Positions 24,115 to 39,134 of a DNA stretch of 40,614 bases are shown here, in pieces. Positions within the stretch are counted from its first letter, which is position 1; each line of letters starts with the position of its first letter. The stretch spans positions 1-40,614 of the forward strand of contig NZ_FOLV01000034.1 of NCBI RefSeq assembly GCF_900112415.1, written 5' to 3'. The notes under the pieces were generated by a model. It saw only the letters and a list, made by a program, of their open reading frames with translations. It was not told the DNA's origin and did not search any database. The stretch comes from Bacillus sp. 491mf (GTDB lineage: Bacteria > Bacillota > Bacilli > Bacillales > Bacillaceae_G). The translations under genes and the position numbers were made by a program.

Positions 24115-25260
24115 TCAATCATAACGTATTCTTGTTAAACCGATAACAAAGAAGATACCAGCAAATAAAAGTAGCACTCCAATATATCCTGCTATATCTA
24201 CCAGTGCTCCTCCTCTCGCAATTAATTCTGTAAAACCGCGCATTGCCCATGTTTGCGGGACAAAGTTTGCAATCTTTTGCATAAACTCCGGTTCTATTTC
24301 AATTGGCCAATACAGTCCGCTAATCATACAAGTTGAAATAATGACGATATTTCCTAATGCCGATTGTTGCTCTGTCGTTTTCACCACACTCGCTAACAAT
24401 AAAGCTAGCCCAATAACAGCAAGTAACAACACCGAAACAAGCACAATAATTCCTAACGTATCTCCCCACTGTACATCAAATAATAGATTCGTTAATATCA
24501 TGAGTGCTCCAAATTGAAGCCAACCAATTAGGAAGAATGAGAGAATATATCCAGCTAGTACTTGCACTCTTGTAACAGGTGTTTCCAACAAGCGATGCCA
24601 CACTCCCATTTGCCTTGCTTTTAAAATCGTTCCTGTGCTACTCAGCATAACAATCATTACAAATAAAATTGAAAATCCTGCCGCTCTAGCTGATACACCA
24701 TTAATTGTTTTCTTTCCTGTTACAATAGATTCTTTTTGAATATGAACAGGTTCTGCTTTCGTATGGATAGTTTCGTACATTGTTTCCCAAGACTTTCCGC
24801 TATTTTGGCTCCATACATTCGCTCCTTTTACCTCCACTTCCATTTTCTTTAGTGTACTTTGTAACACGTGCTCTACAGAAGCACCGCCTGTAAAATCAGC
24901 ACTAGATTGAAATAGAACTTTATCACCTTTTCCATCTAACATTTGCTTTTGAAAGTCTTTCCCGATTGTTACAATACCAGAGGCTTTTTTATTTTCAATT
25001 TTCTTCTTTGCCTCTTCATATGATCCTTTTTCCACACTCACAAGATCGCTATGCGTTAATGATTCATAATAATACGCCGACAATTTGGATTGATCTTCAT
25101 CAACCAAAATAATTTTCACTTTGTCATTACCACTTCCACCTAGAAGTCCACCAAAAATTAATGTGAAAAGAATCGGCATACCTAACATAAGAAAATAACT
25201 TTGCGGCTTCATTAATATTTGCTTTAACTCTAGTGAACAAATCGCCCAAATTTTTTTCAC
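24115..25260 (-). CDS. ABC-2 type permease (LnrN-like)
   Basis: 381-residue permease of an ABC exporter. One membrane segment lies near residues 20-40, then an extracellular domain of about 140 residues (KVKIILVDEDQSKL and onward), then five segments starting near residue 190 with MGVWHRLLETPV, as in ABC2_membrane_3 proteins. It is last of three genes: 12 bases behind the second permease and with the ATPase it forms a heteromeric exporter. Gene order and neighbours match LnrLMN (YfiLMN) of B. subtilis, which confers resistance to linearmycins, lytic polyenes; the actual substrate here is unknown. Confidence 0.87.
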   Translation of the reverse strand: MKKIWAICSLELKQILMKPQSYFLMLGMPILFTLIFGGLLGGSGNDKVKIILVDEDQSKLSAYYYESLTHSDLVSVEKGSYEEAKKKIENKKASGIVTIGKDFQKQMLDGKGDKVLFQSSADFTGGASVEHVLQSTLKKMEVEVKGANVWSQNSGKSWETMYETIHTKAEPVHIQKESIVTGKKTINGVSARAAGFSILFVMIVMLSSTGTILKARQMGVWHRLLETPVTRVQVLAGYILSFFLIGWLQFGALMILTNLLFDVQWGDTLGIIVLVSVLLLAVIGLALLLASVVKTTEQQSALGNIVIISTCMISGLYWPIEIEPEFMQKIANFVPQTWAMRGFTELIARGGALVDIAGYIGVLLLFAGIFFVIGLTRIRYD

Positions 25261-25272
25261 TGCTCTCTCCCC

Positions 25273-26469
25273 CTATCTAGTCCGTAACCGTAATGTTCCA
25301 ATGATAACGGAAAGGATGCCAGCACTAGATAAACTCAAAATAATTGGTAATAGCGTATTCCAAGACGTTCCTGACATAATATCTAGAAAACTCGTAAGCG
25401 CCCATTTATTTGGGGCAATATTAGCAAGTTTTTGCAACGTACTAGGGAATGCATAAATTGGTAACATAGAACCGCCTAATACCGCTAACAGTTGAATACC
25501 AATCCCGCCCATAACATCTGCTGTTCTTTCATCTCGAATAAAGGCGGCGATCAGCATTGATAATCCCGACACACAAATTGCATAGGAAACTCCCACTGCA
25601 ATAAGCTGTGCAATGTCATCCCCCCAATTCACACCGAATACATAATGGGTTGCAATGACAAATACGCCAAATTGAATACACGCAAATAGTAACGTTCCAA
25701 AAAATTTCCCTAATAAGACAGAATAAGCACTTGTCGGTGTCGTTAATAACCTTGCTAACGTTTCTGTTCGCCGTTCTCCTATAATTGATTTTGCACCAAC
25801 TGTTACGTTATATAGAAGAAACATCACCAACATCGCTGCCGCATAGTATTGCATAGCCACAACCGTGTTCTTACCAATTGTGCCTGTTTGAATTCCAGTT
25901 TCATGTGAAGTTGCAATAGATTGTAAGTCTGTTCCCATATTCTTTGCTACTTCTTGCACATTCCCTTGTTGAGATTGCGCCAGGTCCGTTACTACGCTCT
26001 TTGTCGCAAAAGCTACCGTTTGCACTCGTTCAGCAAAAGATTGAATGAATGAATCTGCAATTTTTGCTTGTATGTCTTTCGCAGGATCCGTAAGCAGTTC
26101 AACTTTTTTAAATTTTCCTTCTTGTATATGTTCACTCCACTGCTTCGGAATGATAATCCCAGCGTCAATCTTCTTCTCCTTCAACATCTTTTCTAAATCG
26201 GTTCGCGACGAAACTTTCTCGACTTTCACATCATCTTTTATTTCTTTTGCCTCCAATACGTCTGTTCGAAACATAGTAGCAAACGTATCTTCATCTTCCT
26301 GATAGTAGCCAATTACTGTTTTCGGTAATCCGCCTTCATCTATAACCGCACTTAAAGCTGACCCTAAAATAGCTGTTAATAAAAGCGGCATAAGTAACAT
26401 CATCACGAAACCACGCCGATCCGTAAAACGTATCTTAAAATCTTTCCATGCGATAATAAAACTTTTCAT
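25273..26469 (-). CDS. ABC-2 type permease (LnrM-like)
   Basis: 398-residue permease with the same layout as its neighbour: an N-terminal segment (MLLMPLLLTAILGSAL), a large extracellular domain with KKIDAGIIIPKQWSEHIQEG, and five or so C-terminal segments beginning near GKNTVVAMQYYAAAMLVMFL; the coupling-helix region reads GERRTETLARLLTTPT. It lies 12 bases after the ATPase gene. Two different permeases plus one ATPase is the LnrLMN arrangement. Confidence 0.87.
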   Translation of the reverse strand: MKSFIIAWKDFKIRFTDRRGFVMMLLMPLLLTAILGSALSAVIDEGGLPKTVIGYYQEDEDTFATMFRTDVLEAKEIKDDVKVEKVSSRTDLEKMLKEKKIDAGIIIPKQWSEHIQEGKFKKVELLTDPAKDIQAKIADSFIQSFAERVQTVAFATKSVVTDLAQSQQGNVQEVAKNMGTDLQSIATSHETGIQTGTIGKNTVVAMQYYAAAMLVMFLLYNVTVGAKSIIGERRTETLARLLTTPTSAYSVLLGKFFGTLLFACIQFGVFVIATHYVFGVNWGDDIAQLIAVGVSYAICVSGLSMLIAAFIRDERTADVMGGIGIQLLAVLGGSMLPIYAFPSTLQKLANIAPNKWALTSFLDIMSGTSWNTLLPIILSLSSAGILSVIIGTLRLRTR

Positions 26470-26481
26470 ATTCTCTCCTCC

Positions 26482-27414
26482 TTAATCACGAAGTGAACGA
26501 CCAGTTAGTTGTAAAAAGAGTGCTTCTAAATTCGGTTCTTGTACTTCAAGCTTTGCAATTTGCACACGATTTCCAACAACTTCTGAAACGACCATACCAA
26601 CTGCATCACTATGTGTTAGAGCAATATCAATCGTATTCGAATCCTCATCCACTACAATACGCTCTACAACAGGAAGTGCTTGTAATTTCTGCAATAATTG
26701 TTGGTCGTAATGATTAACCTGTAGCTTCACCATGAAACCATCTGCAAGACGATTACATAGTTCACTCTTCGTTCCAAGCGCAATGACCTTTCCATGATCT
26801 ACAATCGCAATGCGCTCACATAAATATTCGACTTCCTCCATGTAATGACTCGTATAAATAACTGTCATTCCCTTTTCATTTAACTTTTTCACTGTTTCTA
26901 AAATATGATTTCGTGATTGCGGGTCAATTCCAACTGTTGGTTCATCCATAATTAATAGTTCAGGTTCATGCATAAGCGCCACGCCAATATTTACACGGCG
27001 CTTCATACCGCCTGAAAAGGTTTCAATTTTATCTTTCGCGCGTTCTTCTAGACCAACATACGCTAGCACTTCATCCGCACGTTTCTTCGCTGCCGCTCCG
27101 CTAAGTCCATACATTTTCCCCCAGAAAATTAAATTCTCTTTCGCCGAAAGTGTCGGATATAAAGCAATATCTTGCGGAACAACACCAATTTTTTGTTTCG
27201 TCTCCATCGGATGCTCTTTCACAGACTTTCCACCAACACGTATATCCCCGCTATCATATGGAAAGAGCCCACAAATCATTGAAATTGTTGTTGATTTCCC
27301 TGCACCATTTGGACCAAGCAGTCCAAATGTTTCCCCTTTCTCAATCGAAAATGATACGCCCCTCACGACTTCTTTTTCCCCGAAAGACTTTGTAATATGA
27401 TCTACGACTAACAT
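26482..27414 (-). CDS. ABC exporter ATPase (LnrL-like)
   Basis: 310-residue ATPase with Walker A GPNGAGKSTT, Q-loop VVPQD, signature FSGGMKRRV, Walker B LLIMDEPTVGID and switch His in YTSHYMEEVE, followed by a C-terminal extension of about 90 residues as in exporters of the DrrA/CcmA type. It drives the two permeases encoded next. AAAGGGG 8 bases upstream marks the ATG. A terminator separates it from the regulator gene, so the exporter has its own promoter, probably activated by the regulator. Confidence 0.9.
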   Translation of the reverse strand: MLVVDHITKSFGEKEVVRGVSFSIEKGETFGLLGPNGAGKSTTISMICGLFPYDSGDIRVGGKSVKEHPMETKQKIGVVPQDIALYPTLSAKENLIFWGKMYGLSGAAAKKRADEVLAYVGLEERAKDKIETFSGGMKRRVNIGVALMHEPELLIMDEPTVGIDPQSRNHILETVKKLNEKGMTVIYTSHYMEEVEYLCERIAIVDHGKVIALGTKSELCNRLADGFMVKLQVNHYDQQLLQKLQALPVVERIVVDEDSNTIDIALTHSDAVGMVVSEVVGNRVQIAKLEVQEPNLEALFLQLTGRSLRD

Positions 27415-27500
27415 GTCGATTCAACCCCTTTAATGTAATCTCACTATGATTGTAAAAAAAAAACTTCATCTTTCCATCGCTCTTTAGATAGAAAATGCAT

Positions 27501-27530
27501 AACAAAAAAGCAGCATCATCTGCTGCTTTT
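27501..27530 (-). terminator. Terminator between the response-regulator gene and the exporter operon
   Basis: AAAAGCAGCA (27506-27515) and TGCTGCTTTT (27521-27530) with a 5-base loop; the A-run on the left gives a T-run on the minus strand. Confidence 0.9.
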
Positions 27531-27552
27531 TCATACTTATCTATGCCAAAAG

Positions 27553-28212
27553 TCATATGTAAGCTGTCACACCGTACCGCACAGCAAAAATAGCTGCTTG
27601 CGTTCGGTCACGAAGCTCCAATTTACTAATAATATTGGAGACGTGATTTTTTACTGTTCCTTCCGTAATAAATAATCTCTCCGCGATTTCTTTATTATTT
27701 AATCCATATCCTAATTCCCGCAACACTTCTATTTCTCGCTCTGTTAACTGTCCGATTTGTTCTGGAACACACTGCTCAGCAACATAATCTTTCGTTTTCT
27801 TCAATTCTTTCACAATTTGAGCGGTAATATCTTGCGGGAGTACAACGCCTCCAGCATGCACAGTCAAGATCGCTTGCACAATTGTATCTGTCGCCATATC
27901 TTTTAATAAATAGCCGCTTGCCCCTTGTTCAAGCGCTTCAAAAATAAGTTCACTATCATTAAACGTTGTCAACATAAGTACTTTTATATGGGGAAATCGC
28001 TCCCTTATTAAACGCGTTCCCTCCACACCGTTTGTACGAGGCATCCGAATATCCATTAAAATGATTTCAGGCTGAATCCGCTTTGCATTTTGCACAGCTT
28101 CTTCTCCATCGCTTGCAGTTCCAACCACTTCAAGTTCTGGGCGTAAATTTAATAACATCGCTAATCCATCACGAACTAGCGACTGATCGTCCACAATCAT
28201 AATTCGAATCAT
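27553..28212 (-). CDS. NarL/FixJ-type response regulator (LnrK-like)
   Basis: 219-residue regulator. The receiver domain has the acidic pair Asp8-Asp9 (MIVDDQ), phospho-acceptor Asp54 (LMDIRMP), Thr in LMLTTFND and Lys in YLLKDM. The C-terminal LuxR-type helix-turn-helix reads LTEREIEVLRELGYGLNNKE and TEGTVKNHVSNII. The ATG at 28212 overlaps the kinase stop by four bases (ATGA), so the two are translationally coupled. It most likely controls the exporter operon just downstream. Confidence 0.92.
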   Translation of the reverse strand: MIRIMIVDDQSLVRDGLAMLLNLRPELEVVGTASDGEEAVQNAKRIQPEIILMDIRMPRTNGVEGTRLIRERFPHIKVLMLTTFNDSELIFEALEQGASGYLLKDMATDTIVQAILTVHAGGVVLPQDITAQIVKELKKTKDYVAEQCVPEQIGQLTEREIEVLRELGYGLNNKEIAERLFITEGTVKNHVSNIISKLELRDRTQAAIFAVRYGVTAYI

Positions 28213-29399
28213 ACCGCGCCCCCTATCACCCACGTCTTTTCCCTTAGTGGGAACTCCACATTTAGTTGAAATCCCTTATCTTTTTCACTTTCAAACCGAA
28301 TCATTCCCCCGCGTTCTTCTACGCGCTCCTTCATATTGATTAGTCCAAAACCAGGATGTACTTCATTTACGCCTGTTCCATCATCAGAAATAGAAATATG
28401 CACCTTTCCATCTAAACAAGACAGTTTCATTTCACATGTACCTGCCTTACCATGACGCTTTGCATTTGTTAACGATTCCTGCATAATACGCAATATAGTG
28501 GGGTGTAATGATAACGGAATAATGACTGGATCACCGTTCAGTTTAAATGTCGTTCTCACATTTGTTGCATTCGAAAATTCATTTAACATCTGCCTAATAT
28601 TACTGACTAAGTCTCCTGTATTTTCTTCTTTCAAAGTTCGCACAGAGGCCCTCACCTCTTGCAACGATTTTTTCGCTAACTCATGACATGTTTGCAGAAC
28701 CGTTCCAGTTTGATCTGATTTCTGTTTCAATAATTCCTCAGCAAGCTGTAATTGAACAAGTAATGCCGTCATATTATGACCTACCGTATCATGAATTTCA
28801 CGGGCAATATCATTTCGCTCTTTCACTGCCGTTAATTCTTCCACTTCTTTTGCATATAGCTGCAATTGCTCATGTGCCTCCTGAAGCGCTTCATGTGATG
28901 AAGTTAGCTTTTCATACTGTTCATCTACCGTTTGGCGAGCTAATGTTAGTTTTTTAATTAACCCGCCAGTAAGAGCACTAAATACAACGAACATAAACGA
29001 AATAATATTGCCCCAAATTTCAAACGCTCCAAAATATTGATATGAATATATTAAAATAGCAAACCAACAGATAAAGAAAAATCCTATAAAAAAACGGGCT
29101 ATCATTTTCGATTGAATATTAATAAATAAAGTTACCGCATCTACACCGAACAAAATTAAATACAAATCTACTTTTGGAAATAAGAATCCAAATATAGCTG
29201 TTACAATCCCATTCGATAACAATATAAAAAATATTCGTCGCTCTCCGCTATGAGGCATCATAAGCAAACAATGATTCACAACATAAATCAGACAAGCAGC
29301 GCCAACAAATAATTGTAAGCCTAGTTTCCCATGTGGAATATGCAAAGCATACACAATACAAATGAGAACAATCGTAAGTAGCCGGGCATATCCTAGCAT
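28209..29399 (-). CDS. Sensor histidine kinase (LnrJ-like, HisKA_3)
   Basis: 396-residue kinase with five or six membrane segments in the first 150 residues and almost no extracellular loop, as in intramembrane-sensing kinases such as LiaS and LnrJ. After a coiled-coil (ARQTVDEQYEKLTSSHEALQ and on) comes the phosphorylation motif EIHDTVGHN and the ATP-binding part (MQESLTNAKRHGKA, ISDDGTGV, GFGLINMKERVEERGG). The ATG at 29399 follows GGGGGG; an upstream extension of seven residues has no ribosome binding site. Confidence 0.92.
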   Translation of the reverse strand: MLGYARLLTIVLICIVYALHIPHGKLGLQLFVGAACLIYVVNHCLLMMPHSGERRIFFILLSNGIVTAIFGFLFPKVDLYLILFGVDAVTLFINIQSKMIARFFIGFFFICWFAILIYSYQYFGAFEIWGNIISFMFVVFSALTGGLIKKLTLARQTVDEQYEKLTSSHEALQEAHEQLQLYAKEVEELTAVKERNDIAREIHDTVGHNMTALLVQLQLAEELLKQKSDQTGTVLQTCHELAKKSLQEVRASVRTLKEENTGDLVSNIRQMLNEFSNATNVRTTFKLNGDPVIIPLSLHPTILRIMQESLTNAKRHGKAGTCEMKLSCLDGKVHISISDDGTGVNEVHPGFGLINMKERVEERGGMIRFESEKDKGFQLNVEFPLREKTWVIGGAV

Positions 29400-29577
29400 A
29401 AAGTTTCCCCCCGTATTCAAACAAAATATACAGACTCCATATTCTTCCCCATCCGAATCATCAAACCATCTTTCTTAAAAAACGGGAATGCCACACTAAA
29501 ATTCCAATATACAGAAACTGTAAGTGTTTTATGTTAAAGTGGAATTGTGGTTAATATGTAAAGGAGAATGATACCTT

Positions 29578-33741: not shown

Positions 33742-33960
33742 GTGTATTCCCTCTTCTTTCGCTGAAATTTGTCCCCTTTCAGCATTACGTATATACAACT
33801 GTTTCCTTATCTATCATACCAAGAATATACAGCACCAACATCCTTCTTAAGGCTGATTTTACGATGCAGAGGATACAAAACAACTATAAAAATGTAATAT
33901 TTTGCTATCAATTATCAAAACGAGTTTCAATGATTGATAGCGACATCCACTTTCATTTTC

Positions 33961-34120
33961 CGACATAAAGGTCGCTGCTGTGCAGGATAAAATATGACCT
34001 ACTCTCTTGTTTTAAACTCCGCACGCGGCAGGAAAGGGCCCCTATACATGGCCAAATGCTCTCGCCCACCCATAAAAAGAAAGTAGTCTTTATATCACCA
34101 ACTCGCATTTATATAGTACA
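33961..34120 (-). repeat. Dispersed repeat family, copy A (most complete)
   Basis: On the minus strand it runs from TACTATATAAATGCGAGTTG through GGGCGAGAGCATTTGGCCATG and CCTTTCCTGCCGCGTGCGGA to AGCAGCGACCTTTATGTCG. Parts recur in copies B, C, D and possibly E. A reading frame MAMYRGPFLPRAEFKTRE runs through the middle and is recognisable, with stops, in copies C and D. It could be one of the bcr2-bcr18 repeats of the B. cereus group, but I cannot assign which. Confidence 0.7.
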
Positions 34121-34141: not shown

Positions 34142-34171
34142 AAAAAAACAAGAAGGCTCGCCTTCTTGTTT
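34142..34171 (-). terminator. Terminator of the 34183 peptide gene
   Basis: AAACAAGAAGGC (34146-34157) and GCCTTCTTGTTT (34160-34171), with a run of T on the minus strand (A-run 34142-34148). Confidence 0.88.
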
Positions 34172-34182
34172 CATCTATATTA

Positions 34183-34293
34183 TTAAACAATAAAGTTTGT
34201 GATTATATCAAAAATCCCAATACATACAATCGCAACACCAAAGTAGCTAAACCACTCTACCAACGGAACATTAACTACTTCTTCTTTTTGCAT
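34183..34293 (-). CDS. Tiny membrane peptide under a BceR-type box
   Basis: 36 residues: MQKEEVVNVPLVEWFSYFG, then the hydrophobic VAIVCIGIFDIITNFIV. The layout is an acidic start and one membrane helix. GAAGGGAG lies 9 bases upstream. It has its own promoter of the shared 64-bp type and its own terminator, so it is a complete unit. The sequence does not match the other tiny peptides closely, apart from size and topology. No family is recognised; membership in an envelope-stress regulon is inferred from the promoter. Confidence 0.8.
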   Translation of the reverse strand: MQKEEVVNVPLVEWFSYFGVAIVCIGIFDIITNFIV

Positions 34294-34341: not shown

Positions 34342-34405
34342 ATTATGAGAGAAATATGACAAAAGAGCCATTGAATTTGCTTACGTAAACCTTACATTTT
34401 TGTAA
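34342..34405 (-). promoter_or_regulatory. BceR-type promoter of the 34183 peptide gene
   Basis: Minus strand: palindrome TTACA-AAAA-TGTAA (34392-34405), 6 bases, CGTAAG, 4 bases, TTCAATGGCT (-35 ATGGCT at 34366-34371), 18 bp, -10 CATAAT (34342-34347). The half-site spacing equals that of four other promoters nearby. The poor -35 suggests dependence on an activator. Confidence 0.75.
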
Positions 34406-34410
34406 GGTAG

Positions 34411-34514
34411 AAAAATAGTCCCATCTCCTTTGAGATGAGACTTACATATAGTTGGTTGTTAATCCTTTTCATCACATTATTACTTCAGACAGAAAGATGT
34501 ATTTCGTTCTTTCT
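34411..34514 (-). ncRNA. Candidate small RNA of about 100 nt
   Basis: A promoter of the shared type ends with -10 TATAAT at 34521-34526; a terminator with stem GAGATGAGACT/AGTCCCATCTC (34432-34442 and 34417-34427; G-U allowed) and a T-run lies about 100 bases on. The only ATG frame in between (MKRINNQLYVS and on) lacks a ribosome binding site and runs past the terminator, so the transcript is probably not translated. Confidence 0.6.
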
Positions 34515-34520
34515 ATTTTT

Positions 34521-34584
34521 ATTATAGGTCATACCCACGATCGCAACTATCGAATTACATTACACATACCTTACAGTATTGTAA
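34521..34584 (-). promoter_or_regulatory. BceR-type promoter of the candidate small RNA
   Basis: Minus strand: TTACA-ATAC-TGTAA (34571-34584), 6 bases, TGTAAT, 4 bases, TTCGATAGTT (-35 ATAGTT at 34545-34550), 18 bp, -10 TATAAT (34521-34526). It begins 14 bases beyond the stop of the YxeA-family gene. Confidence 0.75.
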
Positions 34585-34597
34585 TATGTCTTTCTTT

Positions 34598-34963
34598 TTA
34601 TTGTATTGTTAAAAGTTTCCCTCTCGCATTTAACGGAATATCTTCTTTATCTATTTCAACTAATCTCTCAGCATAACGCCCTTTTGCAATGATTTCTAAC
34701 GGTTCATTTTGTTTTAACATTTTCTGAATCGTTTTTGTAATCTTCTGTTCCCGTCCGTCTTCATCATATCCAACAAACTCATATTCATACCAGCCATCTC
34801 CAATATGTTGACCAATCCCTTTTACAATTGTGTAATACGCTTTCGTTTGATAAAACGGATTATACTTATCAATTACTGGACCAAGCTTTGTTGGTAATAG
34901 TAAGACAACGATAACAATACTAGCAAGTGCCCCCAAAAATATACGTCTCCGTATCTTTTCCAA
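34598..34963 (-). CDS. YxeA-family protein (DUF1093)
   Basis: 121 residues: a hydrophobic N-terminal anchor (IFLGALASIVIVVLLL), then an extracellular domain with the YxeA pattern WYEYEFVGYDEDGREQKIT and EDIPLNARGKL. In B. subtilis yxeA follows the yxdJKLM locus, a BceRS-BceAB-like system answering to antimicrobial peptides; the role of the protein itself is unknown. The start is TTG at 34963 behind GGGAGG. Its promoter shares the BceR-type palindrome with the divergent peptide gene at 35143. Confidence 0.78.
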   Translation of the reverse strand: MEKIRRRIFLGALASIVIVVLLLPTKLGPVIDKYNPFYQTKAYYTIVKGIGQHIGDGWYEYEFVGYDEDGREQKITKTIQKMLKQNEPLEIIAKGRYAERLVEIDKEDIPLNARGKLLTIQ

Positions 34964-34985
34964 TTTGGTTTCCTCCCTTGCATTT

Positions 34986-35030
34986 TATGCGTAACCTTTC
35001 TCTCAGTTTAGAAAAGAAAGGTTACGCATA
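34986..35030. repeat. Perfect 16-bp inverted repeat around the YxeA-gene -10
   Basis: TATGCGTAACCTTTCT (34986-35001) and AGAAAGGTTACGCATA (35015-35030) with a 13-base centre that holds the predicted -10 (TAAACT, minus strand). Because transcription would start near 34998, inside one arm, the RNA cannot form the hairpin. This points to a DNA-level operator for a second regulator. Confidence 0.7.
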
Positions 35031-35068
35031 CCATTGAACTGCCTTACACTTCTCTTACAAAAATGTAA
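35005..35068 (-). promoter_or_regulatory. BceR-type promoter of the YxeA-family gene
   Basis: Minus strand: TTACA-TTTT-TGTAA (35055-35068), 6 bases, TGTAAG (35043-35048), 4 bases, TTCAATGGTA (-35 ATGGTA at 35029-35034), 18 bp, -10 TAAACT (35005-35010). It uses the same palindrome as the plus-strand promoter. Confidence 0.7.
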
Positions 35069-35118
35069 GCTTTCTGTAAGCTAATTCGATAGTTGAAATG
35101 CCCCCGATTTCGTACAAT
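35055..35118 (+). promoter_or_regulatory. BceR-type promoter of the 35143 peptide gene
   Basis: TTACA-AAAA-TGTAA (35055-35068), 6 bases, TGTAAG (35074-35080 zone), 4 bases, TTCGATAGTT (-35 ATAGTT at 35089-35094), 18 bp, -10 TACAAT (35113-35118). Confidence 0.75.
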
Positions 35119-35142
35119 GAAATCAGATAAGGAGAGATTATA

Positions 35143-35247
35143 ATGGAAAACCAAATTACCTTTAACAAGTTTGATTACGTAGGGCTTGCTGGCGGCGCGA
35201 CTCTTCTTACAGCATCCATTTATGTTGCCGCAGTAATGCTTATATAA
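35143..35247 (+). CDS. Tiny membrane peptide (NKFDY family)
   Basis: 34 residues: MENQITFNKFDYVGLAGGAT, then LLTASIYVAAVMLI. AAGGAGAG lies 7 bases upstream. It is clearly homologous to the peptide at 36396 (both ITFNKFDY-x-GL, GA-x-LLT-x-x-IY), and both have the same promoter type and a terminator behind them. One membrane helix follows a short charged start. Weaker pattern similarity links it to the trio at 19.6-20.1 kb. Function unknown. Confidence 0.82.
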   Translation: MENQITFNKFDYVGLAGGATLLTASIYVAAVMLI

Positions 35248-35282
35248 TTTTGTGTCCCCTTTCCCCTTATATAGATAAATTT

Positions 35283-35316
35283 GAAAAGACGACCTTCTAT
35301 GCCAGGTCGTCTTTTC
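35283..35316. terminator. Terminator between the 35143 peptide gene and plsC
   Basis: GAAAAGACGACCT (35283-35295) and AGGTCGTCTTTTC (35304-35316), perfect 13-bp stem, between convergent genes. Confidence 0.9.
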
Positions 35317-35325
35317 CTATTATCA

Positions 35326-35934
35326 TTATGCTCTTTTATCCTCTTGCAACGTTTCTTTTAACTGTGTAAACGCCTCATTTAATTTTTCTGTCATCAGTTT
35401 CATCACTTCTTTACGATCCATTTGTTCTGACTGCTCTACTTGAATCGGATCACCAAAAATTAATTGCGCTCTTTTTCCACGAAACAATTCTTTTAAACTG
35501 TTAGGCCCAACGTATGCAGCCGGAACTAACGGAACATTAGAACGAAAGGCAATTGTAACAGCACCAGCTTTCAATGAAGTAGCCTCAGCAGATCTCGTTC
35601 CGCTCGGGAAAATCCCCACAACTTTTCCTTCTTTTAATAACCTAGATGGAATTTTCAGCGTACTTGGTCCTGGATTTTCACGATCAACTGGAAACGCATT
35701 TACCCCATTAAAAAACCAATTCCCAAATTTACTTTCAAACAATTCCTTTTTAGCCATATAGTAAATTTTCGTTGGTAACATCCCCGTCGCTAACATGACA
35801 ACATCCATCCAACTTCTATGAGTACAAGCTACGACATATGCTCCGCTTTGCGGTAATTTTTCTTTTCCATATACCTCCACTTTCCCAAATGTTTTAAATA
35901 TATATTTCAACACCCTTACAATGAATGTATACAT
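35326..35934 (-). CDS. plsC: 1-acyl-sn-glycerol-3-phosphate acyltransferase (PlsC family)
   Basis: 202-residue membrane-associated acyltransferase that forms phosphatidic acid. The catalytic HX4D motif is THRSWMD (His39, Asp44); the substrate motif is FPSGTRS, where most homologues have FPEGTR, and VPAAYVG is motif IV. Length is normal for bacterial PlsC. The Glu-to-Ser change in the second motif is unusual but occurs in some Bacillus paralogues as far as I recall. Monocistronic. Confidence 0.9.
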   Translation of the reverse strand: MYTFIVRVLKYIFKTFGKVEVYGKEKLPQSGAYVVACTHRSWMDVVMLATGMLPTKIYYMAKKELFESKFGNWFFNGVNAFPVDRENPGPSTLKIPSRLLKEGKVVGIFPSGTRSAEATSLKAGAVTIAFRSNVPLVPAAYVGPNSLKELFRGKRAQLIFGDPIQVEQSEQMDRKEVMKLMTEKLNEAFTQLKETLQEDKRA

Positions 35935-36000
35935 TCGATCTGTTCCCTTCTACAATTTAATTTTTTATAACTGTATTTATATAAATCCAATTTGACTTTG

Positions 36001-36100
36001 CAACACACAAGTTGCTGCCGTGCTGAACAAAAAATAACCTGCACTTGCTTTCTCTCTTTATTTGAACATTGCCTGTGGCAGAAAAGGATTTTATGCCAGT
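36001..36100 (-). repeat. Dispersed repeat family, copy D
   Basis: Minus strand: CTTTTCTGCCACAGGCAATG, AAATAAAGAGAGAAAGCAAG and CAGCACGGCAGCAACTTGTG align with copies A and C. The frame PFLPQAMFK is interrupted by a stop. It lies in the 460-bp gap between plsC and the 36396 peptide gene. Confidence 0.6.
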
Positions 36101-36189
36101 TTTTTAATTTGATTTATATATTTTCGATTATAACACTAAGTATTAATAGTTGGTAATAAAATTAAGTGACAATTTTTAAAATTTTTTCC

Positions 36190-36253
36190 TTACAAAACTG
36201 TAATGCTACTGTAAGCTAATTCGATAGTTACTCCCTTTCACCTGTCATATACT
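36190..36253 (+). promoter_or_regulatory. BceR-type promoter of the 36396 peptide gene
   Basis: TTACA-AAAC-TGTAA (36190-36203), 6 bases, TGTAAG (36210-36215), 4 bases, TTCGATAGTT (-35 ATAGTT at 36224-36229), 18 bp, -10 TATACT (36248-36253). GTAAGCTAATTCGATAGTT is identical to the promoter at 35055-35118. Confidence 0.78.
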
Positions 36254-36261
36254 TAAATCAG

Positions 36262-36371
36262 AAACAGGGCAGCAAAAAACATCGAAAAGGCACTCACATA
36301 CTAAACAAAGGTTGTAACTACAAGGCGGTTTGTGTTATCCCCTTTATCGATGCAAAATTGTTGCTACTGCA
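36262..36371 (+). other. Structured 5' leader of the 36396 peptide gene
   Basis: The transcript starts near 36260 and the gene at 36396. In between GCAGCAA pairs with TTGTTGC (G-U allowed), and CATCGAAAAGG (36280-36290) pairs with CCTTTATCGATG (36341-36352). The enclosed 50 bases may fold further. The sister gene at 35143 has no such leader. No known riboswitch class is recognised. Confidence 0.5.
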
Positions 36372-36395
36372 TTACATAAGTAAGGAGAGATCACT

Positions 36396-36497
36396 ATGAA
36401 CAACATTACTTTTAATAAATTTGATTACATGGGACTTGTAAGCGGCGCCGCTCTTCTTACCGTAGTTATTTACGCGCTTGCACATGTCCTTGTATAA
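36396..36497 (+). CDS. Tiny membrane peptide (NKFDY family)
   Basis: 33 residues: MNNITFNKFDYMGLVSGAA, then LLTVVIYALAHVLV. AAGGAGAG lies 7 bases upstream. Homologue of the 35143 peptide with conserved N-terminal ITFNKFDY and helix pattern. It differs in having a leader of about 135 bases with stable stems. Followed by a terminator shared with the convergent regulator gene. Function unknown; the promoter places it in the same regulon. Confidence 0.82.
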   Translation: MNNITFNKFDYMGLVSGAALLTVVIYALAHVLV

Positions 36498-36520: not shown

Positions 36521-36557
36521 AAAAGTGCCGCCTGTAATCTTACAAGCAGCACTTTTT
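36521..36557. terminator. Bidirectional terminator
   Basis: AAAAGTGC-C-GC-C-TGTA pairs with TACA-A-GC-A-GCACTTTT; C-A mismatches on the plus strand become G-U pairs on the minus strand, so it is strongest for the regulator gene. Confidence 0.8.
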
Positions 36558-37485
36558 AGTTTGTTTCATACATAATTTGACCCGTTTTACCTATATCATA
36601 ACCACCAATAGCACGCAATTCATTTTGAAATTCAGGAGACTGTAATACCTTTTTTACTGTTTCAATCAGCTCCATGTTTTCCTCTGTTTTTAAAATTACT
36701 AAATCGTAACGTTCTTGTATAAGCGGAACAAAATCTACATTTACAATTTGCGCGACTTTTTCTGTTCCTACTCCTACGTCAGCTTTTCCATTTGCAACTT
36801 GAGAAGCAACACCAATATGATTTGATTCTTCCCAATCATATCCACAAATGTCCATTTTTGATATTCCGTTTATACGCAACTGTTCATCGACAAGAACTCG
36901 AATACCAGATCCTCTTTCCCTATTTACAAATTGAATGGATGTACCACATAAATCATTCCATGTTTGCACTCGTTTCGGATTTCCTTTTTGCACATAAAAA
37001 CCTGATGTTCTTGATAATAAATTCATAACAATACAAGGCTGTCCAACTAAAATTCGTTTTACATACGGAATGTTGTATTCCCCCGTATCCCCATCGAACA
37101 AATGAAGGCTCACAATGTCTCCTTTTCCTTGATACATCTGAATCAAACTTGTTAAGCTCCCTTGATATGCCCTTAACATATTAGAAACTTTCAAACGGCT
37201 CTCTACATGTTTCGTTAACATATCTAAAGACAAATCTTGTCCACTGATAATACAAGAATCAGATTTACTTGGCGGGTTCATTACTTGCATAGATGAAGAA
37301 ACTACCTGGACTTTTCCTGTTTTCATTTTTGTAATATATTGCTCTAAATCACTAGCATCAACACGCATTTGCCTACCAATTCGATAAGAGGGTAATTCAC
37401 CTTTTTTAATCAAATCATACACTGTTAATTTTGATACTTTTAACCGTTTCGCTACTTCTTCTGTTGTGTAGGAATGATGATCCAT
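36556..37485 (-). CDS. Excisionase-type HTH regulator with molybdate-binding-like domain
   Basis: 309 residues. The N-terminal winged helix (YTTEEVAKRLKVSKLTVYDL, LPSYRIGRQMRVDASDLEQY) is of the excisionase/BldC type. Residues from about 110 form a periplasmic-binding-protein-like domain (PBP_like_2) with NLLSRTSGFYVQKGNP, NRERGSGIRVL and VANGKADVGVG. The same fusion occurs in YvgK of B. subtilis, which lies next to modAB-type genes there. It is divergent from modAB and probably senses molybdate or tungstate and controls them. Confidence 0.87.
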   Translation of the reverse strand: MDHHSYTTEEVAKRLKVSKLTVYDLIKKGELPSYRIGRQMRVDASDLEQYITKMKTGKVQVVSSSMQVMNPPSKSDSCIISGQDLSLDMLTKHVESRLKVSNMLRAYQGSLTSLIQMYQGKGDIVSLHLFDGDTGEYNIPYVKRILVGQPCIVMNLLSRTSGFYVQKGNPKRVQTWNDLCGTSIQFVNRERGSGIRVLVDEQLRINGISKMDICGYDWEESNHIGVASQVANGKADVGVGTEKVAQIVNVDFVPLIQERYDLVILKTEENMELIETVKKVLQSPEFQNELRAIGGYDIGKTGQIMYETN

Positions 37486-37555
37486 AAGCCGATTCCTCGC
37501 TTTCTGCCTTCATTGTAACAAAAATTCCAGTTTTCTTTCTATTTATTTTCACTAT

Positions 37556-37571
37556 CGTGAGAAAAATCACA
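37556..37571 (+). promoter_or_regulatory. Fnr/Crp-type site upstream of modA
   Basis: CGTGA-GAAAAA-TCACA matches TGTGA-N6-TCACA at 9 of 10 positions. If the -10 at 37613-37618 is used, its centre lies near -61.5. Fnr control of molybdate uptake would fit anaerobic nitrate respiration (inference). Confidence 0.5.
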
Positions 37572-37573
37572 AC

Positions 37574-37620
37574 ATAACTAAATATAACTATTTATAATTA
37601 ATTATATCTAGTTATAATTA
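37574..37620 (+). promoter_or_regulatory. Five 10-bp-phased ATAAYTA repeats, mod operator
   Basis: ATAACTA at 37574 and 37584, ATAATTA at 37594, ATATCTA at 37604 and ATAATTA at 37614: five units with an exact 10-base period. The last one holds the -10 TATAAT (37613-37618) of modA. BldC-type proteins bind such direct repeats head to tail, so this is the likely binding array of the adjacent regulator. Confidence 0.7.
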
Positions 37621-37650
37621 GATTGGGGATAAAAGAAGGGAGAAATGAAA

Positions 37651-38451
37651 ATGAACAAGCTCATATTTCGTTTAATTTGCAGTATTTTATTCACACTACT
37701 TCTCGTAACAAATGTAGGATGTACAAACACAAATAAACAAGAAAAAACAATTGCTAAAGAAGAAAAGGTTGAACTTACCGTTTCTGCAGCAGCTAGTTTA
37801 CAAGATGCATTAAAAGAGATTCAAGCACAATATGAAAAGAAAGAATCAAATATAAAGCTCTCATTTAACTTCGATGGTTCTGGCAAGCTTCAACAGCAAA
37901 TTGAACAAGGAGCTCCTGTTGATTTATTCTTCTCTGCCGCAGAAGATAAATTTCAAACGCTCGTATCGAAAGGACTTATTGATCAAAAAGAAGGAAAAAA
38001 CCTACTCGGTAATGAGTTAGTATTAGTTGTTCCTAAAGATAGTAATTTAAAAGACTTTCAATCGTTAAAAGATGAGCAAGCAACAAAAATTGCATTAGGT
38101 ACACCTGAATCTGTTCCAGCTGGAAAATACGCAAAAGAGACGCTTACTCATTTAAATCTTTGGAACGACCTTCAAAGTAAAATTGTATACACAAAAGATG
38201 TGCGCCAAGTATTAACATACGTAGAAACAGGAAATGTTAATGCGGGGATTGTTTATAAAACAGACGCCCTTATTTCAAAGAAAGTGAAAATCGCTAACAC
38301 AGCCCAGGCAAATTCACACGAACCAATCCGCTATCCATTAGGAATTGTAAAAGCAACGAAACATAAAAAAGAGGTAACTGCTTTTTATGAATACTTACAG
38401 TCTAAAGACGCTATGGCGATCTTTAAAAAATATGGTTTTACAGCGTTGTAA
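37651..38451 (+). CDS. modA: Molybdate ABC transporter substrate-binding lipoprotein ModA
   Basis: 266 residues with a lipoprotein signal ending TNVGC (lipidated Cys24). The mature part has the ModA pattern: LTVSAAASLQDALKEI, FDGSGKLQQQIEQGAPVDLF, ALGTPESVPAGKYAKE and YPLGIVKATKHK; serines and tyrosine in these segments bind the oxyanion. The ATG at 37651 has GAAGGGAG at 8-base spacing; an ATG two codons earlier is too close to it. Eight bases separate it from modB. Confidence 0.93.
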   Translation: MNKLIFRLICSILFTLLLVTNVGCTNTNKQEKTIAKEEKVELTVSAAASLQDALKEIQAQYEKKESNIKLSFNFDGSGKLQQQIEQGAPVDLFFSAAEDKFQTLVSKGLIDQKEGKNLLGNELVLVVPKDSNLKDFQSLKDEQATKIALGTPESVPAGKYAKETLTHLNLWNDLQSKIVYTKDVRQVLTYVETGNVNAGIVYKTDALISKKVKIANTAQANSHEPIRYPLGIVKATKHKKEVTAFYEYLQSKDAMAIFKKYGFTAL

Positions 38452-38459
38452 TTGTAACG

Positions 38460-39134
38460 ATGACATTTGATACATTTTGGTCACCTATCATTCTTTCACT
38501 AAAAGTTGCTGCACTTTCTACAATCATTGTGATGGTATTTGGAACGATAGTTGGACGTGTTTTAGCTCGGTCCTCGAAGCGCTATAAAATTTTGTTAGAA
38601 ACCTTTTTTCTATTACCGATGGTACTGCCGCCCACTGTAATTGGATTTTTCCTCATTATTATCTTTGGAAAAAGCAGTCCCCTCGGTCAGTGGATCGAAA
38701 CTTTGTTTCAACAATCTATTATGTTTACATCTTGGGCTGCTGTGATTGCTTCAACTGTAGTTGCATTTCCGCTTATGTACCAATCAGCAAAAGCGGGGTT
38801 TAGCATTGCCAATGAACAAATTGAAGACGGGGCTAGAGACCTTGGAGCAAATGAATTACAAGTGTTCTTACATGTAACATTACCACTCGCACTCCCTTCT
38901 CTACTTGGCGGAATGATTTTAAGTTTCGTTCGCGCCCTAGGAGAATTTGGTGCGACGCTTATGTTCGCTGGTAATATTCCTGGTAAAACACAAACGATCC
39001 CAACTGCCATTTATATGGCAATTGATGCTAGTAACATGCCACTTGCATGGGCGCTCGTTCTTACAACTGTCGGTATGTCGATTGTTTTTTTATTGCTCAT
39101 TCAGTTTATAAATAAAAAGGTAACCTCTTTCTAA
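38460..39134 (+). CDS. modB: Molybdate ABC transporter permease ModB
   Basis: 224-residue permease with five or six membrane segments. The cytoplasmic EAA motif reads EDGARDLGANELQVFLHVTL, which contacts the ATPase; LRALGEFGATLMFAGNIPGK-type sequence (as VRALGEFGATLMFAGN) is typical of ModB. It is the last gene of the operon: a terminator follows, and no modC ATPase is present in the window. B. subtilis yvgL-yvgM likewise lacks an adjacent ATPase. Confidence 0.93.
   Translation: MTFDTFWSPIILSLKVAALSTIIVMVFGTIVGRVLARSSKRYKILLETFFLLPMVLPPTVIGFFLIIIFGKSSPLGQWIETLFQQSIMFTSWAAVIASTVVAFPLMYQSAKAGFSIANEQIEDGARDLGANELQVFLHVTLPLALPSLLGGMILSFVRALGEFGATLMFAGNIPGKTQTIPTAIYMAIDASNMPLAWALVLTTVGMSIVFLLLIQFINKKVTSF

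What the first reader, a model, noticed from the sequence alone, without database searches (positions are those of the whole stretch)
34342..36253. Five promoters with one 64-bp BceR-like architecture driving tiny membrane peptides, a YxeA protein and a small RNA
Seen directly: at 34342-34405 (-), 34521-34584 (-), 35005-35068 (-), 35055-35118 (+) and 36190-36253 (+) the same layout recurs: TTACA-N4-TGTAA, 6 bases, YGTAAK, 4 bases, TTCRATRGNW, 18 bp, -10. All five are exactly 64 bp long, and one palindrome serves two divergent promoters. Known: BceR-type response regulators bind TnACA-N4-TGTAA, and YxeA lies beside such a system (yxdJKLM) in B. subtilis. Inference: this is a compact regulon answering to envelope-active peptides whose effectors are 33-36-residue membrane peptides and an sRNA. 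The third half-site, one helical turn on, may define a specific regulator.
Basis: partly seen in the sequence, partly recalled or inferred. Interest (0 to 1): 0.88.

Follow-up and report, generated by a model that had tools for sequence, protein, structure and literature searches.

The report
Five-promoter island for tiny stress peptides
Within two thousand bases, five near-identical switches of the kind bacteria use to sense peptide antibiotics appear to drive three tiny membrane peptides, one small membrane-anchored protein and perhaps a short RNA, which points to small peptides as a neglected output of this stress response.

Summary
All five 64-bp sites are present, the full pattern occurs nowhere else in the window, and chance would give 3.6e-8. 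The architecture is a general Bce-type promoter, not a local oddity. The window's pattern found 32 loci in other Bacillota and Actinobacteria, 22 of them directly upstream of BceAB-type transporter genes. Their -10 boxes, which the pattern does not specify, lie at the same distance. So the sites are very probably bound by a BceR-type (OmpR-family) response regulator; none was found in this window. The targets are a YxeA protein, two DUF3948 peptides, a 36-aa peptide and a possible ~100-nt RNA. Elsewhere YxeA genes lie directly behind a BceB permease (45 of 79, none with a box) or apart from Bce genes, 10 of 24 with such a box. Two conserved 27-35-residue peptide groups without Pfam match also sit behind these boxes in Brevibacillus and other Bacillales. 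Tiny peptides therefore look like a recurrent output of Bce-type regulation. Inducer, cognate regulator, RNA and peptide action remain untested.

The parts
34342..34405 (-). Site A: Bce-type promoter, -10 CATAAT; before the 36-aa peptide gene
   Evidence: score 50.2
34183..34293 (-). 36-aa ORF with one hydrophobic segment, no known family
34145..34172 (-). terminator-like hairpin closing the site A transcript
34521..34584 (-). Site B: Bce-type promoter, -10 TATAAT, starting 13 bp after the yxeA stop codon
   Evidence: score 40.6
34417..34514 (-). predicted ~100-nt RNA from site B ending in a terminator-like hairpin (34442-34417); may also be the 3' end of the yxeA mRNA
   Evidence: z -1.93; no pairing signal; no Rfam family
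35005..35068 (-). Site C: Bce-type promoter, -10 TAAACT; shares its palindrome with site D
   Evidence: (score 37.6)
34598..34963 (-). YxeA-family protein, 121 aa, DUF1093/TIGR01655, N-terminal helix and small beta domain
35055..35118 (+). Site D: Bce-type promoter, -10 TACAAT
   Evidence: score 46.7
35143..35247 (+). DUF3948 membrane peptide, 34 aa
35283..35316 (.). hairpin between the DUF3948 gene and the convergent acyltransferase gene
   Evidence: listed on the - strand
36190..36253 (+). Site E: Bce-type promoter, -10 TATACT
   Evidence: score 45.4
36260..36395 (+). ~136-nt 5' leader of the second DUF3948 gene, imperfect hairpin; site D's leader lacks it
   Evidence: z -1.56, not significant
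36396..36497 (+). DUF3948 membrane peptide, 33 aa

Best explanation
A compact promoter island of a Bce-type antimicrobial-peptide response. Shown by sequence: five sites with the complete Bce-type promoter layout (palindromic main site, half-site 11 bp further on, TTCRATRG element over the -35 position, -10 at offset 58) in front of a YxeA gene, two DUF3948 peptides, a 36-aa membrane peptide and a stretch of ~100 nt closed by a terminator-like hairpin. Inferred: when a BceAB-like sensor transporter elsewhere in the genome meets a lipid II-cycle or membrane-active peptide, its kinase phosphorylates an OmpR-family response regulator. A dimer binds the TTACA-N4-TGTAA palindrome and a second dimer the downstream element, where it makes up for a missing -35. 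At C/D one palindrome may nucleate two divergent secondary sites. The products insert in the membrane: YxeA as an accessory of a Bce transporter or its signalling, the tiny peptides as effectors or modulators of a transporter, a lipid II-cycle enzyme or the bilayer. The confidence is for Bce-type control of envelope-stress outputs; the peptides' mode of action is a guess (about 0.35 for partner-modulating membrane peptides of the VraH kind).
For: Five exact sites, chance 3.6e-8. The pattern found 32 loci in genome contigs; first downstream class by script: 20 BceA, 1 BceB, 2 YxeA, 1 response regulator, 3 tiny ORF, 5 larger ORF, of which L031 is a BceA on inspection. The -10 at offset 58/59: 85% of 69 BceA, 75% of 4 BceB, 81% of 16 YxeA, 67% of 2 regulator, 88% of 23 tiny-ORF and 87% of 50 larger-ORF sites, against 6.3% of 501 random positions. 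With up to 2 mismatches the pattern has 60 places in 48 of 397 Bacillales genomes with 2 matches of the reversed control, and 125 places in 34 of 39 Brevibacillales genomes with 0 control matches. Neighbouring regulators checked at L006, L011 and L021 are OmpR-type with kinases of 329-340 aa, and L011 has an FtsX permease. YxeA: 45 of 79 family-fetched genes directly behind a BceB-like permease, 0 with a box; of 24 with no Bce gene in the fetched locus 10 have a box (a first count with other ORF limits gave 44 of 80 behind BceB). Box scores of 10 or more in 15 of 82 YxeA upstream regions (3 of these fetched by the pattern), 0 of 82 in downstream or shuffled controls. Several other box targets are envelope genes: Transgly, PAP2, MGDG synthase. 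Box-linked tiny peptides elsewhere. Literature: TNACA-N4-TGTAA as the consensus for regulators of bceAB-type genes (passage of PMC9020739); YxeA/YsaD as accessory of Bce modules (passages of PMC7438565).
Against: No Bce-type regulator, kinase or BceB was found in the 40-kb window: of 37 window ORFs put to Pfam only 27553-28233 has a response-regulator domain, and it is NarL-type with an ABC-2 exporter. No genome of the window's own species is held and no close relative turned up, so conservation of these five sites could not be tested. The one DUF3948-like gene found in 397 Bacillales genomes (G244, weak, 24.7 bits) has no box. L080, one of the box-linked peptide loci, is followed by a kinase with a HAMP domain, not a Bce-type one. 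No expression data. In the paper that mentions DUF3948 transcripts the trigger was loss of a plasmid, not a peptide antibiotic (PMC10196113 passage). The pattern used for fetching came from the window, so matches at pattern positions are circular.
Confidence: 0.77

Rival explanations
1. The boxes belong to a PhoP-type (PhoB/OmpR) regulator. Read on the other strand the sites contain TTACA-N6-TTACA, a direct repeat with an 11-bp period like a Pho box (Pho-box form recalled).
For: The 11-bp repeat is real; PhoP and BceR are both OmpR-family regulators (recalled).
Against: In other genomes the same 38-bp pattern lies mostly before bceAB-type genes, and else before YxeA, cell-wall enzymes and others; I saw no phosphate-uptake gene among the listed non-Bce targets (most read by eye, ten by Pfam). 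Palindrome and fixed TTCRATRG element are not Pho-box features (recalled).
Confidence: 0.07
2. The two-component system in the same window (NarL-type regulator 27553-28233, HisKA_3 kinase 28209-29420, ABC-2 exporter 24115-27414) controls the island.
For: It is the only two-component system found in the window and may be an envelope-stress system (likeness to B. subtilis LnrJKLMN recalled).
Against: Different regulator class; no site of the five-type lies before its own operon; elsewhere the box sits beside OmpR-type regulators.
Confidence: 0.06
3. The five copies are remnants of a dispersed repeat or promoter duplication and only some are active.
For: D and E share 88% over 41 bp plus the DUF3948 gene start, so that pair is a duplicated promoter-gene unit; a diverged repeat of another kind lies nearby in two copies.
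Against: A, B and C differ in linker and spacer yet keep every motif position and the 64-bp length; the same layout stands before unrelated genes elsewhere.
Confidence: 0.1
4. The tiny membrane peptides are toxin-like or bacteriocin-like rather than protective, with the site B RNA as an antisense partner.
For: 33-36 aa hydrophobic peptides and a short RNA next door are reminiscent of type I toxin-antitoxin loci (recalled).
Against: Site B RNA pairs with the island mRNAs no better than shuffled RNA; each peptide has the stress-type promoter itself.
Confidence: 0.1

Closest known systems
B. [quoted passage not shown]
   Same: TNACA-N4-TGTAA main site (PMC9020739 passage); YxeA beside YxdLM (PMC3968067 and PMC7438565 passages). 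A main site, linker and low-affinity secondary site in PbceA and PpsdA was described by Fang et al. 2017 (recalled; not held), which fits the third half-site and TTCRATRG element.
   Different: Here no Bce transporter or two-component genes lie beside the boxes; five boxes within 2 kb stand before tiny peptides, a separate YxeA gene and a possible RNA.
S. aureus NsaRS/BraRS regulon with VraDEH
   Same: A Bce-type system inducing a small membrane protein, VraH, needed for high-level daptomycin and gallidermin resistance (passages of PMC6291627 and PMC7438565).
   Different: VraH is encoded in the transporter operon; the window's peptides each have their own promoter. Similarity of the peptides to VraH was not tested.
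DUF3948 peptides of the B. cereus group
   Same: Two window peptides match PF13134; in B. cereus G9241 five adjacent DUF3948 transcripts of ~110 nt rise most when pBCX01 is lost, function unknown (PMC10196113 passage).
   Different: That array has five adjacent genes; here two genes start about 1.25 kb apart, each behind a Bce-type promoter. The promoters of the five-gene array were not seen.

Membership tests
Bce-type (BceR/PsdR/YxdJ-like) promoter | TNACA-N4-TGTAA palindrome | tested here: met
   five of five sites
Bce-type (BceR/PsdR/YxdJ-like) promoter | downstream secondary element and -10 at the distance seen in promoters of bceAB-type genes | tested here: met
   offset 58 in five of five; promoters before bceAB-type genes peak at 58/59
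Bce-type (BceR/PsdR/YxdJ-like) promoter | bceRS/bceAB genes adjacent (usual, not required of every regulon member) | tested here: not met
   none found in the 40-kb window; in L. paracasei Bce-type regulators also act on dlt and mprF (PMC10858260 passages)
Bce-type (BceR/PsdR/YxdJ-like) promoter | binding by a BceR-type regulator and induction by peptide antibiotics | not testable with these tools
   needs footprinting and expression data
YxeA family (DUF1093, TIGR01655) | profile match above curated cut-off | tested here: met
   44.9 bits against 26.3; 52.9 against 29.65; model matches 3npp, BSU39620
DUF3948 (PF13134) | profile match above curated cut-off | tested here: met
   40.5 and 44.7 bits against 25; the two genes differ at codon positions 1/2/3 by 9/6/15 in register
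type I toxin-antitoxin | antisense RNA complementary to the toxin mRNA | tested here: not met
   no duplex clearly better than shuffles

The most novel reading that the evidence does not exclude
Tiny membrane or amphipathic peptides of about 25-40 residues are a general, repeatedly evolved output of Bce-type antibiotic sensing: DUF3948 and the 36-aa peptide in this window, a 27-35-residue '[DN]GK' group and a 33-residue Brevibacillus 'VKL' group elsewhere, behind their own extended BceR-type promoters and sometimes heading a gene row with YxeA, a regulator or a peptidoglycan transglycosylase. They would act on the membrane, the transporter or lipid II-cycle enzymes as a transporter-independent arm of the response, and this window would be its densest island seen so far.
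Probability: 0.42. Interest if true: 0.8.

Novelty: new variant of a known kind. Interest (0 to 1): 0.64.

Why it matters
Bce modules are among the main peptide-antibiotic defences of Gram-positive bacteria, and their outputs are usually taken to be ABC transporters plus a few cell-wall enzymes (recalled). The extended box with its fixed -10 gives a simple pattern, with few control matches (2 against 60 and 0 against 125), for finding Bce regulons in genomes. It exposes a layer of tiny peptides of which the non-DUF3948 ones tested have no Pfam match, and gives DUF3948 and separate YxeA genes a testable regulator and inducer class.

Tried and rejected
Pho-box and NarL-regulator readings (see rivals). 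HssR/HitR: the direct repeat bound by that B. anthracis system (PMC3968170 passages) is another kind of site than a palindrome with a downstream element; not compared by sequence. RNA partner search for the site B transcript: nothing clearly better than shuffles. Rfam: only a tRNA at the window edge reaches its cut-off; in the island one sub-threshold snoRNA match, taken as chance. Site E leader as a structured element: z -1.56, not convincing. Plasmid and phage relatives: a DNA search of the island found only distant acyltransferase genes; tblastn of the 33-aa DUF3948 peptide found nothing in plasmids; the window's YxeA has only distant Enterococcus plasmid hits and none in phages. bacRS-bcrAB of the B. 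cereus group is described as a different bacitracin system (PMC6208641 passages). Structure: YxeA is a known fold with solved relatives, which gave no functional lead. NCBIfam at E 1e-60 named none of seven Bce-type proteins tried.

Limits of the counts: the census (167 non-window sites) covers only loci I fetched, a selected part of the places listed, many from close relatives, and its script classes have errors seen by eye (L031 is a BceA, L234 a transglycosylase; tiny ORFs at L082, L066, L169 and L222 are doubtful; tiny peptides at L001 and L005 were hidden under the classes RR and YxeA). All nine '[DN]GK' loci had been fetched for their box. could not parse L255 and L266 and read L261, L264 and L265 on the wrong strand; L255 was read. 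The codon count of the DUF3948 pair was out of register and is replaced. For the L065 (-) site the peptide start is ambiguous. Some loci reached with two mismatches (L049, L050) look like chance.
Full report
What was checked. The five sites were read directly. The full pattern TTACA-N4-TGTAA-N6-YGTAA-N5-TTCRATRG has exactly five matches in the window, at the coordinates and strands given, and each runs 64 bp to the end of a plausible -10. Chance expectation is 3.6e-8. No other stretch of the window scores above 5 on a matrix from other species' promoters, where the five score 37.6-50.2; the matrix sites had been fetched with the window's own pattern. A plain sigma-70 scan lists none of the five, as expected without a -35.

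What the architecture is. I scanned a collection of 84,980 species genomes with the pattern. It returned 32 loci, none labelled as the B. cereus group; that group also seemed absent from other searches (inference). By first downstream gene, 20 are before a BceA-type ATPase, 1 before a BceB-type permease, 2 before YxeA, 1 before a response regulator, 3 before a tiny ORF and 5 before larger ORFs, one of which (L031) is also a BceA: 22 of 32 in all. Typical loci read regulator, kinase, box, ATPase, permease. Three such loci checked with Pfam (L006, L011, L021) have an OmpR-type regulator (Trans_reg_C) and a kinase of 329-340 aa; the FtsX permease was confirmed at L011. The published consensus for regulators of bceAB-type genes is TNACA-N4-TGTAA (passage of PMC9020739). 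The main independent feature is the -10: it is not in the search pattern, yet lies at offset 58 or 59 in 85% of 69 BceA sites, 75% of 4 BceB, 81% of 16 YxeA, 67% of 2 regulator, 88% of 23 tiny-ORF and 87% of 50 larger-ORF sites, against 6.3% of 501 random positions. All five window sites have 58. The extended element is therefore a general property of Bce-type promoters. Fang et al. 2017 described a main site, a linker and a secondary site in B. subtilis PbceA and PpsdA; this is recalled, the paper is not held.

How specific it is. With up to two mismatches the pattern has 60 places in 48 of 397 Bacillales genomes, with two matches of the reversed control, and 125 places in 34 of 39 Brevibacillales genomes, with none. 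A few of the 60 look like chance (L049, L050). Two versions are visible, TGTAA..TTCRATRG as in the window and TGAAAG..AATCGATAG; G001 and G237 carry both.

YxeA. The window's 121-aa protein is a YxeA/DUF1093 member; its model (mean pLDDT 85.7) matches the B. subtilis structure 3npp. DUF1093 was found in 60 of 397 Bacillales genomes. Of 79 distinct family-fetched upstream regions, 45 lie directly behind a BceB-like permease and none of these has a box. 24 have no Bce gene in the fetched locus and 10 of them have a box; 10 have a Bce gene elsewhere in the locus, one with a box. A first count with other ORF limits gave 44 of 80 behind BceB. Fetched loci were only some 3-5 kb, so 'no Bce gene' means none nearby, and 14 of the 24 have no box either. 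The window's yxeA is of the separate, box-driven kind. L034, a contig of the viral collection, carries another.

Tiny peptides. In other genomes several box-driven genes besides transporters are envelope genes by Pfam: peptidoglycan transglycosylases, PAP2 phosphatases (BcrC-like by inference), an MGDG-synthase-type glycosyltransferase; others are a sigma factor, DUF418, DUF4870 and CmpB-type proteins (ten proteins). Tiny ORFs also recur. A 33-aa group ending in VKL and a 27-35-aa group with [DN]GK show fewer changes at codon position 2 than at 1 and 3 (164/86/195 over six sequences and 84/32/124 over five, summed over pairs), which speaks for coding. Members tried have no Pfam match (five members of the two groups), and the one member of each tried has no NCBIfam match. 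They are less hydrophobic than the window's peptides (19-residue hydropathy 1.21-1.77). Among 14,112 small ORFs of the loci then held, nine distinct '[DN]GK' peptides were found. Eight have a box score of 23 or more just upstream, and the ninth (L072) does too when measured from its Shine-Dalgarno start; all nine loci had been fetched for their box. In L005 the peptide precedes YxeA, in L001 and L080 an OmpR-type regulator; the kinase behind the L080 regulator has a HAMP domain and is not Bce-like. A profile search starting from the peptides gave 25 matches in Bacillales. Of the seven at E 1.3e-6 or better, six have a box (five known before, L269 new) and the seventh (L249) has the palindrome at -103 with a linker one base short, followed by a transglycosylase-like gene. 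Of six at 1e-5 to 1e-3 none has a box (five by score, L255 by eye). The twelve weaker ones (E 0.008-0.05) are too weak to weigh; none scored as a box. In Brevibacillales 18 of 39 genomes match and all 18 have the box. The profile was built from box-linked peptides, which favours such results.

The window's own peptides. DUF3948 (33 and 34 aa) and the 36-aa peptide have one hydrophobic segment each (19-residue hydropathy 1.86-2.31). The two DUF3948 genes differ at codon positions 1/2/3 by 9/6/15 when aligned in register. Each peptide gene has its own promoter and a Shine-Dalgarno sequence; a terminator-like hairpin follows the 36-aa gene and one lies between the first DUF3948 gene and the acyltransferase gene, none was called after the second DUF3948 gene. 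By eye they are unrelated in sequence to the peptides above, so the likeness is one of circuit, not descent. DUF3948 messages are real and can respond strongly: five adjacent DUF3948 transcripts were the most raised on loss of pBCX01 at 37 degrees in B. cereus G9241 (PMC10196113, passage). The library held two papers with the word DUF3948; I saw that passage of one and only the listing and start of the abstract of the other.

The RNA. Site B starts 13 bp after the yxeA stop codon and would give about 100 nt ending in a hairpin with a T-run. I saw no ORF with a Shine-Dalgarno sequence in it; Rfam gave no family, and pairing with island mRNAs is no better than shuffles. It may be an RNA in its own right or a stress-induced 3' end of the yxeA message.

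Mechanism, shown and inferred. Shown: anatomy, spacing, the neighbours of the same architecture elsewhere, and coding evidence for box-driven peptides in other genera. Inferred: binding by an OmpR-family Bce-type regulator, two dimers, the second covering the -35 position; induction by lipid II-binding or membrane-active peptides; a membrane role of the products. Unknown: the regulator, which was not found in the window (37 ORFs put to Pfam; seed search of all window ORFs), and what the peptides touch. VraH of S. aureus is a precedent for a small membrane protein in a Bce-type regulon (passages of PMC6291627 and PMC7438565).

Density. In the place lists I saw no stretch of 2 kb with more than two boxes; the window has five in 1.9 kb. 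Sharing of one element by two divergent promoters was seen, in the loci then held, only here and in a looser form in L066.

Noticed in passing
window 33945-34037 and 35985-36087: Two diverged copies (65% over 103 bp) of an unnamed element, upstream of the lytic transglycosylase gene and of the acyltransferase gene.
   Followed up: partly
window 24115-29420 (-): A NarL-type response regulator, HisKA_3 kinase and ABC-2 exporter gene row resembling linearmycin-resistance systems (likeness recalled).
   Followed up: partly
window 36556-39134: An excisionase-type HTH joined to a PBP-like domain beside a solute-binding protein and a permease gene, apparently a molybdate-type uptake locus with its regulator (function inferred).
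   Followed up: no
L034:425-895: A YxeA gene behind a perfect extended Bce box on a contig of the viral collection; a neighbouring ORF reads like a DNA methylase by eye: possibly a prophage-carried stress gene.
   Followed up: partly
L176, L178, L181-L185, L187, L188, L192, L194-L200: Peptidoglycan transglycosylase-like genes behind extended Bce boxes in many Brevibacillales genomes (of these L176 confirmed by Pfam, as were L227 and L068 from other genomes).
   Followed up: partly
L249 and L255: Tiny '[DN]GK'-like peptide ahead of a transglycosylase-like gene (by eye); L249 has a box with a linker one base short, L255 no clear box but a similar -10 region.
   Followed up: partly
L250-L254: A related tiny peptide subgroup (MKDALRLTLTVVEVMVNGKKVVYELNQ type in L252 and L253) with no Bce box, so part of this family is under other control.
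   Followed up: no
L066:3949-3973: Two divergent Bce-type sites overlapping in one symmetric element with TTCGATGG on both sides, a second case of shared divergent promoters.
   Followed up: no
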